The translations under genes were made by a program, and so were the position numbers. 64,000 nucleotides of DNA from a virus: positions 103,991-167,990 of the IMG/VR virus record IMGVR_UViG_3300032287_002972; one strand, given 5' to 3'. Below the pieces are notes generated by a model that saw nothing but the letters and a program-made list of their open reading frames with translations, searched no databases and was not told the DNA's origin. This document shows positions 19 to 52,465 of the stretch, in pieces; within the stretch, counting starts at the first letter, position 1; every line of letters begins with the position of its first letter.

Positions 19-270
19 ATGAACCCACCAAAAGGTTATTACAGAAATTTGATTAGTGATTCTAACATCAGAATTGCGTTTACTCATACACCGATTCATG
101 GGTGTACAATCGTTGACAAATCTAAAACCTTAGAGGAGTTAGAGAAGTCAAATGACCAATATTCACAATACTATATTGACGGTTTGAAGTCGGGTAATAT
201 GGTTACGATTGTGGAGAACAGTGTTCATGATAGGTACTTTAGAACGGGTGAACTTTATTTCAGTAACTAA
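19..270 (+). CDS. Hypothetical protein, possibly 5'-truncated
   Basis: 83 codons from the ATG at 19. The frame stays open to the window edge, so the true start may lie outside. Composition is soluble and mixed-charge, with no domain or membrane segment that I recognise. It is followed eight bases later by a strong hairpin terminator, so it is the last gene of its transcript. Coding potential is supported by that terminator and by the next promoter cassette starting downstream. Confidence 0.6.
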   Translation: MNPPKGYYRNLISDSNIRIAFTHTPIHGCTIVDKSKTLEELEKSNDQYSQYYIDGLKSGNMVTIVENSVHDRYFRTGELYFSN

Positions 271-277
271 AAAATTA

Positions 278-303
278 GGTGGGGAGAAATCCTCACCTTT
301 TTT
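278..303 (+). terminator. Intrinsic terminator
   Basis: GGTGGGG pairs with CCTCACC (one G-T pair) around a 6-base loop and is followed by a T run. Confidence 0.8.
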
Positions 304-316
304 ATTGTTGGAAATG

Positions 317-360
317 AATTTAGTGGGGCAAGGAATGGTTAGGTCGTTGCCCCACTAATT
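317..360. repeat. Intergenic palindrome, copy 1
   Basis: AATTTAGTGGGGCAA (317-331) is mirrored by TTGCCCCACTAATT (347-360) around a 15-base spacer. It belongs to a family of near-identical inverted repeats that sit between a terminator and the next promoter in this part of the window. Confidence 0.85.
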
Positions 361-413
361 CGAAATATGCACACGCTGTGGTAAAAAATGAATTAAAAAT
401 AATATAAAATAAA

Positions 414-7828: not shown

Positions 7829-8023
7829 ATGAAACTAAAGTTTGAAGTAAAATGTAATTGGTGTGATTGGGAAGGTTACGAAGACGATTTGACATTAGAA
7901 GTAGATTTGTCCGATAACTTAATTTCACACGACGTACAGTATAGGAAAGTTTGTCCTGAATGTTTATCAGAGGATCATTTAATGGATATTGAATCTGATG
8001 AATTAACATCTAAAATAGATTAA
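7829..8023 (+). CDS. Small zinc-ribbon protein (64 aa)
   Basis: CNWC near residues 10-13 and CPEC near 44-47 form a two-CxxC zinc-ribbon pattern, separated by an acidic stretch. Such proteins bind zinc and often act as nucleic-acid or protein adaptors; the partner is unknown. Followed immediately by tRNA-like sequence. Confidence 0.8.
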   Translation: MKLKFEVKCNWCDWEGYEDDLTLEVDLSDNLISHDVQYRKVCPECLSEDHLMDIESDELTSKID

Positions 8024-8026
8024 ATT

Positions 8027-8205
8027 GGTAAGGTGGCGGAATGTTTAAACAACCCCGTTCCAGACGGGAAAATAACGTGGTTCGAATCCACTACGGGGTT
8101 AATGTTTAAACTTGGTTAGACGCACCATAATAATAATATTTGGAAGGAGATAAGAATGGCGCTTACCCTAAACCAAATTTTACGGGTTCGAATCCCGTCC
8201 TTACC
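8027..8205 (+). tRNA. Leu-type tRNA-like gene with insert in the D loop
   Basis: Acceptor GGTAAGG (8027-8033) pairs fully with CCTTACC (8199-8205). T arm is ACGGG-TTCGAAT-CCCGT (8182-8198). D stem is GCG (8036-8038) with CGC (8121-8123). The D loop is split after GGCGGAAT by about 70 bases (8043-8111). The anticodon region (8124-8181) does not give a normal 5-bp stem with a 7-base loop, and the best candidate loop is AT-only. No CCA is encoded. Either an unusual tRNA needing processing or a derived tRNA-like RNA. Confidence 0.5.
8043..8111 (+). ncRNA. Nested tRNA-like hairpin inside a D loop
   Basis: Flanked by two GTTTAAAC palindromes (8043-8050, 8104-8111). AACCCCGT (8051-8058) pairs with ACGGGGTT (8093-8100). 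Inside lie a T-arm-like GTGG-TTCGAAT-CCAC (8077-8091) and an anticodon-arm-like CCCG-TTCCAGA-CGGG with CCA (Trp) in the anticodon position. The D arm is absent. It looks like a D-armless tRNA-Trp remnant. Confidence 0.5.
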
Positions 8206-8396
8206 GCGACAGTTAGCGGATTATACTTGGTAGTTCTTGTAAAGTCTGACTATACGTGAGGTGGTTTTTTTAACTTTCCACCAGTAGTGTTCAAAACTAA
8301 AAGTTAATGCAGGTTAATAAAGGGGTAAGGGAAAGTCTAACTATCGAGTACCTTACAACCTACTGTATAAAATGTACATATTTAAAATTGATTATT
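8206..8396 (+). other. Spacer between tRNA-like gene and ORF
   Basis: Contains a GGTGG/CCACC hairpin near 8261-8283 and two AAAGTCT-ACTAT motifs. No promoter box and no convincing intron core were seen. Confidence 0.4.
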
Positions 8397-8780
8397 ATGG
8401 AAACCAATTTCAAAATTCCTAAATTTATAAATAATAACAATTCATTTGAAAAGATTGGATATGATGAATATTGTATTACATATCTTAAAGGACTTAAAGT
8501 CCATCAATTAAGGATTGTTGTGAATGGATATTTAACCAAACAATCAATAAACATTATTGATTTTAGTTCAGGATATAAAAACAAAATATTAATTGGTATT
8601 AAAGAATATCTTACAAACGGTAAGGATAGTAAAAATAAAGTCACTAAAAAAGTTACACTGTATTACTTAGAAACTTTTTATTCAAAAAAAATAATTCATA
8701 ATGTTAAATCATTCTTATTACCTATTAATAAAGAAGAGTCAAGAGATAAATTAACTGAATTTGGATTAATCAATTTATAG
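8397..8780 (+). CDS. Hypothetical basic protein between tRNA-like genes (127 aa)
   Basis: Lys-, Ile- and Asn-rich protein with no recognised domain, with base composition more AT-rich than its neighbours. An in-frame ATG at 8307 exists, but 8397 follows a better A/T-rich leader. The stop codon overlaps the first two bases of the next tRNA-like acceptor stem. Its position between two tRNA-like genes resembles that of tRNA-associated mobile ORFs, but no nuclease motif is visible. Confidence 0.6.
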   Translation: METNFKIPKFINNNNSFEKIGYDEYCITYLKGLKVHQLRIVVNGYLTKQSINIIDFSSGYKNKILIGIKEYLTNGKDSKNKVTKKVTLYYLETFYSKKIIHNVKSFLLPINKEESRDKLTEFGLINL

Positions 8781-8875
8781 TAAGGTGGTGGAATTGGTTA
8801 GACACACCGAAAGGTAGGTACGGTATGGATCCCGATTAAATAATCCTAAATACGGGTTCGAATCCCGTCCTTACT
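8779..8875 (+). tRNA. Leu-type tRNA-like gene
   Basis: Acceptor AGTAAGG pairs with CCTTACT (8869-8875). D arm is GTG-GAATTGGTTAGA-CAC. T arm ACGGG-TTCGAAT-CCCGT is at 8852-8868. A GGAT/ATCC variable-arm stem is possible. The anticodon arm cannot be drawn with U33 and a 7-base loop; the nearest candidate contains TAG. Isotype therefore unassigned. Confidence 0.5.
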
Positions 8876-8926
8876 ACATATTCTCGATTTCTGTTTATAG
8901 TTGTTGTAATTACGTTTTTGGTTTGA

Positions 8927-8956: not shown

Positions 8957-8967
8957 ATGCTTAATTG

Positions 8968-9012
8968 AATTTAGTGGGGCAAGGATTGGAACGGAGGTTG
9001 CCCCACTAAATT
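8968..9012. repeat. Intergenic palindrome, copy 6
   Basis: AATTTAGTGGGGCAA 8968-8982 and TTGCCCCACTAAATT 8998-9012. Confidence 0.85.
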
Positions 9013-10052: not shown

Positions 10053-10070
10053 AATAAAACAAAATAAAAA

Positions 10071-10103
10071 AAATCCCCGTATTAAAAACACGGGGATTTT
10101 TTT
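10071..10103 (+). terminator. Intrinsic terminator
   Basis: AAATCCCCGT and ACGGGGATTT with a 9-base loop and T run. Confidence 0.85.
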
Positions 10104-10114
10104 ATGCTTAATTG

Positions 10115-10159
10115 AATTTAGTGGGGCAAGGATTGGAACGGGGGTTGCCCCACTAATTT
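10115..10159. repeat. Intergenic palindrome, copy 7
   Basis: AATTTAGTGGGGCAA 10115-10129 and TTGCCCCACTAATTT 10145-10159. The spacer is nearly identical to copy 6. Confidence 0.85.
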
Positions 10160-10215
10160 CAAACTACGCAGTTACCTGTATCAAAAAAATACTTATAAAA
10201 AAAATATAAAAAATA

Positions 10216-14668: not shown

Positions 14669-14744
14669 AGTCAGGTGGCTGAATTGGAGACAGAGGCACT
14701 CCGTTAGATGACGGGTGGATACAGGTTCGAATCCTGTCCTGACT
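14669..14744 (+). tRNA. Leu-type tRNA-like gene, short form
   Basis: Acceptor AGTCAGG with CCTGACT (14738-14744). D arm is CTG-AATTGGAGA-CAG. T arm ACAGG-TTCGAAT-CCTGT is at 14721-14737. The stretch between D and T arms is 26 bases, with CCGT/ACGG closing a 6-base loop. A TAG triplet preceded by T suggests Leu(CUA), but the stem register is off by one. Confidence 0.55.
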
Positions 14745-14769
14745 ACAAAAACAAACAAAATAAATTAAT

Positions 14770-15885: not shown

Positions 15886-15917
15886 GTAAGGTGAAAATCG
15901 AATCCTGTCCTGACTAC
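15886..15917 (+). pseudogene. Chimeric tRNA-like remnant
   Basis: GTAAGGTG, the 5' end type of the 8-kb tRNA-like genes, is followed after a few bases by ATCGAATCCTGTCCTGACTAC. That is the T-arm half and acceptor of the 14.7 and 16.1 kb copies. Looks like a deletion joining two paralogous genes. Confidence 0.6.
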
Positions 15918-16072: not shown

Positions 16073-16200
16073 AGTCAGGTGGCGGAATTGGTAGACGCAA
16101 GAAGGAGTAACTTTAGAGTGAGAAGTAATCAGCCTCATTGATGGGTGAAAGTTCCAAGTGCCGGTGATTTGGAGATACAGGTTCGAATCCTGTCCTGACT
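16073..16200 (+). tRNA. Leu-type tRNA-like gene with enlarged anticodon region
   Basis: Acceptor AGTCAGG with CCTGACT (16194-16200). D arm is GCG-GAATTGGTAGA-CGC. T arm ACAGG-TTCGAAT-CCTGT is at 16177-16193. GGA-gt-AACTTT pairs with AAAGTTCC, as a Leu anticodon stem would, but encloses a loop of about 33 bases (16115-16147) instead of 7. This could be a short intron-like insert in the anticodon loop, or a derived RNA. Confidence 0.5.
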
Positions 16201-16221
16201 ACAAAAACAAAATAGATTAAT

Positions 16222-46202: not shown

Positions 46203-46213
46203 TACATTTTTGT

Positions 46214-46291
46214 GGTCAGGGCCGGACTCGAACCGGATAAGTAACCATTTTACTGGACTCGGAAACCATTCCTCATTACACCCACCTGACC
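46214..46291 (-). tRNA. tRNA-like gene
   Basis: Minus strand: acceptor GGTCAGG (46291-46285) pairs with CCTGACC (46220-46214), with a T arm CCGG-TTCGAGT-CCGG. The D and anticodon arms are irregular (GGGTGTAATGAGG, CCAGTAAAATGG), and no standard anticodon can be assigned. Confidence 0.5.
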
Positions 46292-46516
46292 ATTTCCCCA
46301 CCATGAGATTACTGGTGAGTAGATTTTAACGGTTTTGTTTTCTTAAAAACTCTAACCATTAGTGTCTTACCACATGAAATCTAAAATCACACTACTAGGA
46401 GGGATTGTGTTTTCCCTTTATTCCTAAGAGACCGGCGTTTAAGGATGTCCAGTCCAATATCCTACCAAGTTTAAATGAGACATTGGCAAGTCTGCTGAGT
46501 ACCTCTTACTCATTGT
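46292..46516 (-). other. Interior of tRNA-like cluster
   Basis: Contains hairpins (GAGTA/TACTC, GGAT/ATCC, AGGG/CCCT) and a D-arm-like TAATGGTTAGAG stretch on the minus strand, but no complete tRNA fold. Probably decayed or permuted tRNA sequence. Confidence 0.4.
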
Positions 46517-46693
46517 AGTCAGAATAGGGTTCGAACCTATACATACTATAGTATCAACCTGACGTATCCACGCCAGTTAAGGAATTGAACCTTAATATAG
46601 TATCCCACTTTGGGTAAATCGGATTTGCACCGAAGCGTCTACCAATCAGGAATATCAACTTTATCAGTGTTGCCCTTGTTCCGCCATCTGACT
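46517..46693 (-). tRNA. Leu-type tRNA-like gene with large inserts
   Basis: Minus strand: acceptor AGTCAGA (46693-46687) with TCTGACT (46523-46517), and T arm ATAGG-TTCGAAC-CCTAT. The D arm is split: GGCGGAA, about 33 extra bases, then TTGGTAGACGC. The anticodon side is about 90 bases and holds two further T-arm-like hairpins (TCGG-TGCAAAT-CCGA and AAGG-TTCAATT-CCTT). 177 bases in all, close in size and design to the 8027 gene. Confidence 0.5.
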
Positions 46694-46757
46694 GTATTAA
46701 GATTTCTAAAACCCATCTTTTACAAGGTAAGTAAACTCCATCTTATGTTTTTTGCGA

Positions 46758-46858
46758 TGTCAGAATGGGATTTGAACCCATACGAAGTATCTTAATTACA
46801 GGCTCTTTTCACGATACTACCAAGCCATGTGTGTGTCTACCAATTCCACCATCTGACA
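46758..46858 (-). tRNA. Leu-type tRNA-like gene
   Basis: Minus strand: acceptor TGTCAGA (46858-46852) with TCTGACA, D arm GTG-GAATTGGTAGA-CAC, T arm ATGGG-TTCAAAT-CCCAT. GGCTT pairs with GAGCC as an anticodon stem, but the loop has 16 bases instead of 7, and its GTATC can pair with GATAC of the variable arm. Isotype not assigned. Confidence 0.55.
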
Positions 46859-51328: not shown

Positions 51329-52465
51329 TTAATGTGAATCTCCTACATTGTGTTTCTCACTATATATCAAATAGTCAGGATTAATTACTTTAGCAACTTT
51401 TTGTCTGCTTCCAACAACCGTTTTTATCACAACACCTTCATGTGGTACTTTGGTGTTATTTATAAAATTATTAAGTACAAATTTATTTTTCATTTCCTCT
51501 AAATAAAGTCCTTTGTACAATACTTCAACGTAAGGTAGATTTAAACAATCCTCAACAACATATTTACATGCAGTTAAATTTAAATACTTTTTATCTATTT
51601 CGATGTCGAAAATACAAATCTGTATATCATCCAATCCGTACTCATAATTTTTCTGTATTCCTTTCCCGTAGATTTCACCATAGATTATAACCCCACTACC
51701 TATGTTGTCTATATCACCATTCGGTATATTATTTTTAACAAAATACCATAATTTATTCTTAATATCATATTTTTTTTCAATATCGTACCAAACATTAGTA
51801 TCATAGAAACCCTGTGTATCAGAACCCTTTTCTACGTTATGAGAACCTACAACAAATTCATACTCGTCCCAACCTAAATTAAAACCAAAGAACCTTTTAA
51901 TTTTATTCCATAGTGATAATTTACTTTTCTTAACGATTCCGTATCTTGCGTTCGTTCCATGAATTTTTCTGGTGATTTCCACATAATCATTTTCATCAAA
52001 CATGTTCGGAACATTTTTGATGTTAGGGAATTTATAATAAATTAAAAAATTAGGATTCTCATGGTATCTCCTTCTTTTTCCGTTAGATAACCTAACCATT
52101 TTAACTTGAGGTTCGTACTTAAATATTTTAAGCACATCCATTAAATCTTCCCCATCTTTTCTTTTATTCTGTGGAATTAAATCAATTGGCATTAATAAAC
52201 ATTCGCTATAAACACCCCTTAACTTAACCGTCCTAACCCTTTCTTTATTTCTTAGATAATTGGTAACACCCAATTTTTCAGAAATTTCAATAGGGATAAT
52301 AGCGTCAGTAGTTGCACAAATAACCATGTCACCAATAACAAAAGAACCTTTTTTTACAACACAATTCCATCCGTTTACGATGACTAATTCTATGTTGTCA
52401 GAATCAATTATCGGTTTTGTATCATTTACGATAGATACAAAACAAACACTGTTTTCATTTTTCAT
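51329..52465 (-). CDS. RNA ligase, DraRnl/Rnl5-like
   Basis: 378 aa. N-terminal OB-like domain (1-110), then an adenylyltransferase domain with EITRKIHGTN (nucleophile Lys167), YGEIYGKGIQ, IFDIEI, EGVVIK and KVINPDYL. The N-terminal extension is typical of the Deinococcus-type nick-sealing RNA ligase. Likely repairs nicked RNA such as tRNA cut by host anticodon nucleases. The start overlaps the methyltransferase stop by 11 bases. Confidence 0.92.
   Translation of the reverse strand: MKNENSVCFVSIVNDTKPIIDSDNIELVIVNGWNCVVKKGSFVIGDMVICATTDAIIPIEISEKLGVTNYLRNKERVRTVKLRGVYSECLLMPIDLIPQNKRKDGEDLMDVLKIFKYEPQVKMVRLSNGKRRRYHENPNFLIYYKFPNIKNVPNMFDENDYVEITRKIHGTNARYGIVKKSKLSLWNKIKRFFGFNLGWDEYEFVVGSHNVEKGSDTQGFYDTNVWYDIEKKYDIKNKLWYFVKNNIPNGDIDNIGSGVIIYGEIYGKGIQKNYEYGLDDIQICIFDIEIDKKYLNLTACKYVVEDCLNLPYVEVLYKGLYLEEMKNKFVLNNFINNTKVPHEGVVIKTVVGSRQKVAKVINPDYLIYSEKHNVGDSH

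What the first reader, a model, noticed from the sequence alone, without database searches (positions are those of the whole stretch)
8027..8205. tRNA-like hairpin nested in the D loop of another tRNA-like gene
A full acceptor (GGTAAGG/CCTTACC), D stem and T arm enclose a 70-base insert bounded by two GTTTAAAC palindromes. The insert has its own acceptor-like stem, T arm and a Trp-type CCA anticodon arm. Insertion at the palindrome looks like a small mobile tRNA unit or a permuted gene.
Basis: partly seen in the sequence, partly recalled or inferred. Interest (0 to 1): 0.7.

Follow-up and report, generated by a model that had tools for sequence, protein, structure and literature searches.

The report
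Phage tRNA shells carrying other RNAs
This virus of bacteria carries RNA genes that look like transfer RNAs at both ends but have the part that reads the genetic code replaced by other folded RNA; the 'nested tRNA' is one of these with a second RNA module inside its D loop, and hundreds of relatives in other viruses suggest a large, apparently undescribed class.

Summary
The nested feature at 8027-8205 is real. It is a tRNA 'shell': 7-bp acceptor, D stem, G18G19 and T arm. It carries a 69-nt folded insert in the D loop and an unrelated 58-nt stretch where the anticodon arm should be. It is not a tRNA inside a tRNA. Two further distinct versions in other phages (one 86% identical over the insert) show that the two GTTTAAAC copies are the two strands of one helix: both become GTTAAC in one, and one becomes a wobble partner in the other. 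The 'CCA anticodon' and the nested T-loop are not conserved.

The element belongs to a large family in uncultured phages. I collected 241 distinct members with near-constant ends (AGTCAGG...ACAGGTTCGAATCCTGTCCTGACTA) and very diverse interiors. Only 8 of 199 keep an anticodon arm, which is chance level (155 of 211 ordinary tRNA hits do). Some interiors are strongly conserved or compensating between phages while their acceptor stems differ. The window has seven members.

I infer natural tRNA-scaffolded small RNAs, cut out by host RNase P and RNase Z, with the interior as cargo. Processing and cargo function are untested. The D-loop insert is a separable module found on unrelated cargos, so 'mobile unit' is partly right; 'permuted' and 'Trp' are not.

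The parts
8027..8206 (+). Whole element: tRNA shell with a D-loop insert and replaced anticodon region; starts 3 nt after the stop codon of ORF 7829-8023
8027..8033 (+). Acceptor stem 5' strand GGTAAGG (pairs with 8199-8205); AGTCAGG or GGCAAGG with matching 3' strands in relatives
8034..8042 (+). T8, G9, D stem 5' strand GCG (8036-8038) and D-loop start up to the insertion point
8043..8111 (+). D-loop insert (69 nt): closing helix GTTTAAAC(8043-8050)/GTTTAAAC(8104-8111), inner helix 8051-8057/8094-8100, hairpin 8077-8091
8112..8123 (+). Rest of the D loop with G18G19 (8114-8115) and D stem 3' strand CGC (8121-8123)
8124..8181 (+). Interior (cargo) replacing the anticodon arm and variable loop; no 7-nt anticodon loop; contains AAGGAG (8144-8149) and ATG (8156-8158)
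8182..8206 (+). T arm (8182-8198), acceptor 3' strand (8199-8205), discriminator G8206, followed by C8207
8207..8370 (+). Second structured RNA directly downstream (about 165 nt); 76% identical homolog, also directly 3' of a family element, in L006
8779..8876 (+). Sister element (group A): cargo near-invariant in 8 distinct phage sequences while the acceptor stem changes with compensation
14669..14745 (+). Sister element, 77 nt
16073..16201 (+). Sister element, 129 nt
46757..46858 (-). Sister element, acceptor TGTCAGA/TCTGACA
46516..46693 (-). Sister element, acceptor AGTCAGA/TCTGACT, also with a D-loop insert and a nested T-arm-like hairpin
46213..46291 (-). Sister element, acceptor GGTCAGG/CCTGACC; related to an element in L147 and L150

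Best explanation
The element is one member of a large family of phage-encoded RNAs that keep the processing half of a tRNA (acceptor stem, T arm, D arm, elbow contacts) and have lost the decoding half. The tRNA shell acts as a scaffold. The RNA is made as part of a phage transcript, cut out at the 5' end by host RNase P and at the 3' end by host RNase Z, and protected by its tRNA-like ends. It presents one or two structured cargo RNAs: one in place of the anticodon arm and variable loop, and sometimes a second in the D loop just before G18G19. Different shells carry different cargos, and D-loop modules move between shells by recombination. The cargo presumably acts in trans on host or phage RNA or protein. 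Shown here: shell architecture, loss of the anticodon, conserved and compensating cargo in some groups, tRNA-like 3' boundary, modularity. Inferred: transcription, RNase P/Z processing, stability, trans action.
For: Loss of decoding: 8/199 family members have a T33 7-nt loop on a stem at the right place, equal to shuffled interiors (7/199), against 155/211 ordinary tRNA hits in the same loci. Scale: the 3'-end pattern fills the 120-stretch limit of a viral scan, reversed-pattern controls give 0, and 241 distinct members were collected. Shell under tRNA-like constraint: C at position 74 outside the element in 207/211, CCA encoded in 8/211, much as in ordinary tRNAs of these phages; A15-T48 in 158/193; the best fold pairs acceptor positions 3 and 70 in 220/222. 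Cargo under constraint: group A interior near-invariant while acceptors are AGTAAGG, AGCAAGG, AGTCCTG, GGTCAGG or AGTCAGG with matching 3' strands. Group B: 97.5% of cells paired, 11 pairs with double changes against 3.3 in shuffles, 0/500; mean identity 0.955 inside the 3' part of the element and 0.31 in the next 40 nt. Interiors fold better than shuffles (mean z -0.65 vs -0.03). Intergenic (2.8% same-strand ORF overlap) and co-oriented with genes in 223/248, counts that include overlapping copies. Finding's own group.
Against: No transcript data. Of 158 interior clusters 136 are singletons, so conservation is shown only for some groups; others could drift neutrally inside a shell kept only for processing. 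No target or protein partner is known. A15-T48 is mostly invariant rather than covarying. The cargo of 8124-8181 itself has no detected relative and folds no better than chance (z -1.11).
Confidence: 0.6

Rival explanations
1. tRNA punctuation of mRNAs: the shells only mark cleavage sites for RNase P and RNase Z between genes of phage operons, and the interiors are filler.
For: Elements lie between tightly packed co-oriented genes (the element starts 3 nt after a stop codon). Few have an own promoter-like site (12/230 within 300 nt). Most interiors are singletons.
Against: Interiors of groups A and B are conserved or compensating across phages while flanks are not. Many elements sit in gene-poor tRNA arrays. 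D-loop modules are conserved too.
Confidence: 0.2
2. Real tRNAs with introns: interiors are introns removed to give a decoding tRNA.
For: Ordinary tRNA ends; an apparent tRNA-Phe with a D-loop insert exists in L070:7134-7261; the phage encodes an RNA ligase (window 51329-52465).
Against: Canonical anticodon arms at chance level. Members of 54-72 nt have no room for an intron yet mostly no anticodon loop. No intron family recognised by Rfam.
Confidence: 0.06
3. Anticodon-less tRNAs that are charged (D arm identical to bacterial tRNA-Leu, mostly A73) and act as aminoacylated decoys, for example against tRNA-cutting defences or as tmRNA-like helpers.
For: The consensus D arm GTGGCGGAATTGGTAGACGC is that of tRNA-Leu, and bacterial LeuRS does not read the anticodon (established knowledge, not tested here). 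Most members collected end in A73.
Against: The long variable arm of tRNA-Leu is not a shared feature, and acceptor stems vary. The finding's own element ends in G, not A. Charging cannot be tested here.
Confidence: 0.1
4. Mobile tRNA unit or permuted tRNA gene.
For: The D-loop insert occurs on unrelated cargos and is present or absent on the same cargo.
Against: Flanking palindromes co-vary as a helix; the insert lacks a conserved T-loop and anticodon; gene order is not permuted.
Confidence: 0.04

Closest known systems
T4 stable RNAs rnaC (species 1) and rnaD (species 2)
   Same: Phage-encoded small stable RNAs in a tRNA cluster; rnaC ends in a canonical T arm (CCGGG-TTCGAAT-CCCGG)
   Different: rnaC has at most 5 of 7 acceptor pairs and a different fold; only two RNAs, no hypervariable family, no shared sequence found
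tmRNA (RF00023)
   Same: tRNA-like ends with the anticodon domain replaced by other RNA; one phage of the family also encodes a tmRNA (L136:16310-16804)
   Different: tmRNA carries a tag reading frame and pseudoknots and lacks a D stem (established knowledge); family members keep the D stem, are 54-215 nt and give no RF00023 match in the window
Pseudo-tRNA tRNA-Other of Bacillus cereus (PMC3399842)
   Same: tRNA-like RNA that does not function in translation and may be part of a regulatory RNA
   Different: Single cellular gene with a Trp anticodon beside a genomic island; no cargo modules
'tRNA-Undet' and 'tRNA-Cys' annotations in Tenacibaculum phage pT24 (LC168164) and Flavobacterium phage immuto (MW353177)
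   Same: Same architecture; the immuto element has a homolog in L118 with compensating helices
   Different: Annotated as tRNAs, other acceptor sequences; I found no description of them as a family
Engineered tRNA scaffold for recombinant RNA
   Same: Works like it: cargo RNA carried in a tRNA shell (PMC3753655 is a paper using such scaffolds, listed)
   Different: Laboratory construct; this family is natural

Membership tests
Functional tRNA (RF00005) | Acceptor, D and T arms with tertiary core | tested here: met
   three of the seven window elements pass the Rfam cut-off, 8027 does not
Functional tRNA (RF00005) | Anticodon arm with 7-nt loop and U33 | tested here: not met
   8/199 in the AGTCAGG family against 7/199 in shuffled interiors; ordinary tRNA hits 155/211; none in the fold of 8027-8205
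tmRNA (RF00023) | Match to the Rfam tmRNA model | tested here: not met
   No tmRNA match in the window
T4 rnaC-like RNA | Shared acceptor and D-arm architecture | tested here: not met
   rnaC has 5 of 7 acceptor pairs at best and a different fold
Permuted tRNA gene | 3' half precedes 5' half, acceptor inside the gene | tested here: not met
   Normal order in the window and relatives
AGTCAGG-type tRNA-shell RNA family (defined here) | RGYMAGG-type acceptor, TGGYG D arm, TTCRANY T arm, whole element 54-215 nt, no anticodon arm | tested here: met
AGTCAGG-type tRNA-shell RNA family (defined here) | Discrete processed RNA with tRNA-like ends | not testable with these tools
   needs RNA from infected cells; the C74 constraint is indirect support

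The most novel reading that the evidence does not exclude
Large phages, many probably of Bacteroidota, use the tRNA shell as a general chassis for a hyperdiverse repertoire of small regulatory or decoy RNAs, with two sockets (D loop and anticodon position) into which RNA modules are shuffled: natural tRNA-scaffold RNAs as a major, overlooked class of viral non-coding RNA.
Probability: 0.45. Interest if true: 0.9.

Novelty: new variant of a known kind. Interest (0 to 1): 0.76.

Why it matters
If the RNAs are made and processed as their sequences suggest, phages have long used what laboratories invented as the tRNA scaffold, and genome annotation mislabels or misses these genes: ARAGORN found one of seven in the window. 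It would add a large class of structured viral RNAs whose cargos are unknown. It would also make an old question testable: what stable phage RNAs such as T4 species 1 and 2 do. Isolates with such elements exist (Flavobacterium phage immuto, Tenacibaculum phage pT24).

Tried and rejected
Trp anticodon or tRNA-in-tRNA: rejected, not conserved. Palindrome as target-site duplication: rejected, flanks co-vary. Short reading frame behind AAGGAG...ATG in the interior (25 codons running into the T arm; a similar motif in L136): not pursued, the peptides and the T-arm reading frame differ between the two, and no ribosome-site k-mer is enriched in interiors. Exact search for the nested T arm with its upstream context: no hits. 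T4 rnaC as the same family: rejected. Elements as cellular genes: the 25-nt 3' end occurs in only 4 contigs of a collection of 84,980 species, all from metagenome-assembled genomes and 7-28 kb long, so this looks like a phage feature. Exact AGTCAGG relatives in deposited phage genomes: none found, only variants. Literature searches found no description, but the library lacks most subscription journals. Own promoters for the elements: mostly absent.

Full report
WHAT IS THERE. The window is bases 103,991-167,990 of a 167,990-bp virus record. Portal, terminase and tail-sheath matches make it a T4-like myovirus. Among the best terminase matches is Flavobacterium phage immuto (27% identity); the top one is a Microcystis phage. 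Bacteroidota-type promoter sites (TTG-N18..23-TAnnTTTG) occur 20 times on the + strand against 9.65 in shuffles, most of them in the first 15 kb. A Bacteroidota host is therefore likely but not shown.

At 8027-8206 lies a tRNA shell: acceptor GGTAAGG/CCTTACC, T8 G9, D stem GCG/CGC, G18G19, T arm ACGGG-TTCGAAT-CCCGT. Between D-loop base 8042 and the TTGG at 8112 sits a 69-nt insert. Between the D stem and the T arm lies a 58-nt stretch with no anticodon arm. The insert folds into one long branched hairpin of -23.8 kcal/mol, z -3.39. A structural scan of the whole record gives six clear elements, all in the window. A seventh at 46291-46213 has a weaker T stem. ARAGORN reports one of the seven and Rfam's tRNA model three.

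RELATIVES OF THE FINDING. BLAST against loci collected with a 3'-end pattern gave a homolog in L136/L070 (86% over 8028-8123). A pattern search added L161 and a copy of the L136 version in L162. In L136 both GTTTAAAC copies are GTTAAC. In L161 the pair is GTTTAAAC/GTTTGAAC, which still pairs through a wobble. The acceptor is GGTAAGG, AGTCAGG or GGCAAGG with matching 3' strands. AACCCCG/CGGGGTT and GTGG/CCAC are constant, while the supposed anticodon segment and the T-loop are not. So the palindromes are helix strands, and the insert is a structured RNA module, not a tRNA.

The three elements have unrelated second interiors. The L161 interior (TTAAGGGTTGG...TGTTGCAACGTAAAACAGAGAAAATAACC) also occurs in L147, L149 and L150 in a shell without the insert. 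A second D-loop hairpin, AGTGTGCCCTGTT..ACGGGAAGTACAT, is likewise shared by L114 and L172, which carry different interiors. D-loop inserts are thus modular. Those examined sit before G18G19, the length-variable part of the D loop. Two of the seven window elements have one.

THE FAMILY. A looser pattern finds one to eleven copies per record in 25 records, and the reversed pattern none. In all I collected 241 distinct elements from 129 loci. In many of these phages they coexist with large sets of ordinary tRNAs, so they are not replacements for tRNAs. Counted over collected loci, including overlapping copies, they are intergenic and co-oriented with neighbouring genes in 223 of 248 cases.

They have lost the anticodon arm: 8 of 199 have one, as in shuffled interiors (7), against 155 of 211 other tRNA hits from the same loci. 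Yet the 3' boundary is tRNA-like: C74 in 207 of 211, CCA rarely encoded, much as in ordinary tRNAs of the same loci. Base 15 is A and base 48 is T in 158 of 193.

THE INTERIORS. 193 interiors fall into 158 clusters, 136 of them singletons. On average they fold more stably than shuffles (mean z -0.65 against -0.03). Group A includes the window's 8779-8876. Its interior, with core GRTAGGTACGGTATGGANCCCGATTAAATAAYCCTAA, is near-invariant in eight distinct sequences while five acceptor sequences occur, each with compensation. Its small GNRA hairpin also compensates: ACC/GGT, ATC/GAT. Group B (16 sequences) has 27 pairs, 97.5% of cells paired, 11 pairs with changes on both sides (3.3 in shuffles, 0 of 500 reach it), and sliding the partners drops pairing to 28-38%. 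Its sequence identity falls from 0.955 to 0.31 past the element end. These interiors look selected as RNA.

ISOLATES AND KNOWN THINGS. I found no exact AGTCAGG element in deposited phages, but variants exist. A podovirus record (MW202828) has group B with acceptor AGTGCAG/CTGCACT. Tenacibaculum phage pT24 has two 'tRNA-Undet' whose anticodon loop is replaced by a hairpin. Phage immuto has a 'tRNA-Cys' homologous to an element in L118. T4 rnaC and rnaD are the nearest described phage RNAs in spirit, but rnaC has at most 5 of 7 acceptor pairs. tmRNA is the nearest architecture; one phage of the family also has a true tmRNA. Bacillus cereus tRNA-Other shows that pseudo-tRNAs can act outside translation (PMC3399842).

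MECHANISM. Most elements have no own promoter-like site (12 of 230 within 300 nt, 3.4 expected in shuffles) and sit in gene or tRNA arrays. I infer that they are released from longer transcripts by RNase P and RNase Z, which read the acceptor-T-arm half that is kept (established knowledge). The kept D arm and elbow suggest that a full tRNA corner is needed. The cargo then acts in trans or as a decoy. The main rival is pure punctuation, which explains the many singleton interiors but not the conserved ones. Both may be true of different members.

LIMITS. Everything is computed from DNA. The cargo at 8124-8181 has no relative I could find. Absence from the literature was tested only in an open-access library.

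Noticed in passing
window 8207-8370 (+); L006 minus strand about 5480-5325: A second structured RNA of about 165 nt directly after the element, 76% identical in L006 where it also follows a family element; both fold alike, with a compensating helix (GTAAGG/CCTTAC against GATGAAA/TTTCATC).
   Followed up: partly
window 46756-46694 (-); L147, L150, L161: Conserved linker CGCAAAAAACATAAGATGGAGTTTACTTACCTTGTAAAAGATGGGTTTTAGAAATCTTAA beside tRNA-shell elements.
   Followed up: no
L003, L011, L029, L058, L070, L080, L137, L138, L144: A hairpin with loop GGAAAGAC and compensating stems (GCTT/AAGC, CCTC/GAGG, GCT/AGC) immediately upstream of family elements.
   Followed up: partly
window 46510-46292 (-); L018, L093: Long linker RNA with GGTAAGAC...AAAATCTACT...GTAATCTCA...GTGGGG before a family element, recurring in other phages.
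   Followed up: no
L070:7134-7261 and L122:2184-2273: An apparent ordinary tRNA-Phe(GAA) with about 50 extra bases in the D loop, and another tRNA-like gene with a hairpin in the D loop at the same point.
   Followed up: no
L013:587-742, L036:5302-5469, L083:836-992, L047:12256-12431: A separate tRNA-shell group with other acceptors (TGTCAGG, TGTAAGG, TGTAGAG, TGACAGG), discriminator G and conserved GGTTGACCAC; compensating helices.
   Followed up: partly
L136:16310-16804: A phage-encoded tmRNA in the same stretch as several family elements.
   Followed up: partly
window 15898-15917 (+): Lone 3' end of a family element (TCGAATCCTGTCCTGACTAC) without a 5' partner: a probable remnant.
   Followed up: no
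L135:5547-5617: A 71-nt element with the AGTCAGG shell that has a normal anticodon arm (TTT, Lys): a possible link between ordinary tRNAs and the family.
   Followed up: no
window 270-412, 8960-9010, 10066-10162: Recurring intergenic hairpins (AGTGGGGCAAG...TTGCCCCACT type) between genes of the 1-15 kb region.
   Followed up: no
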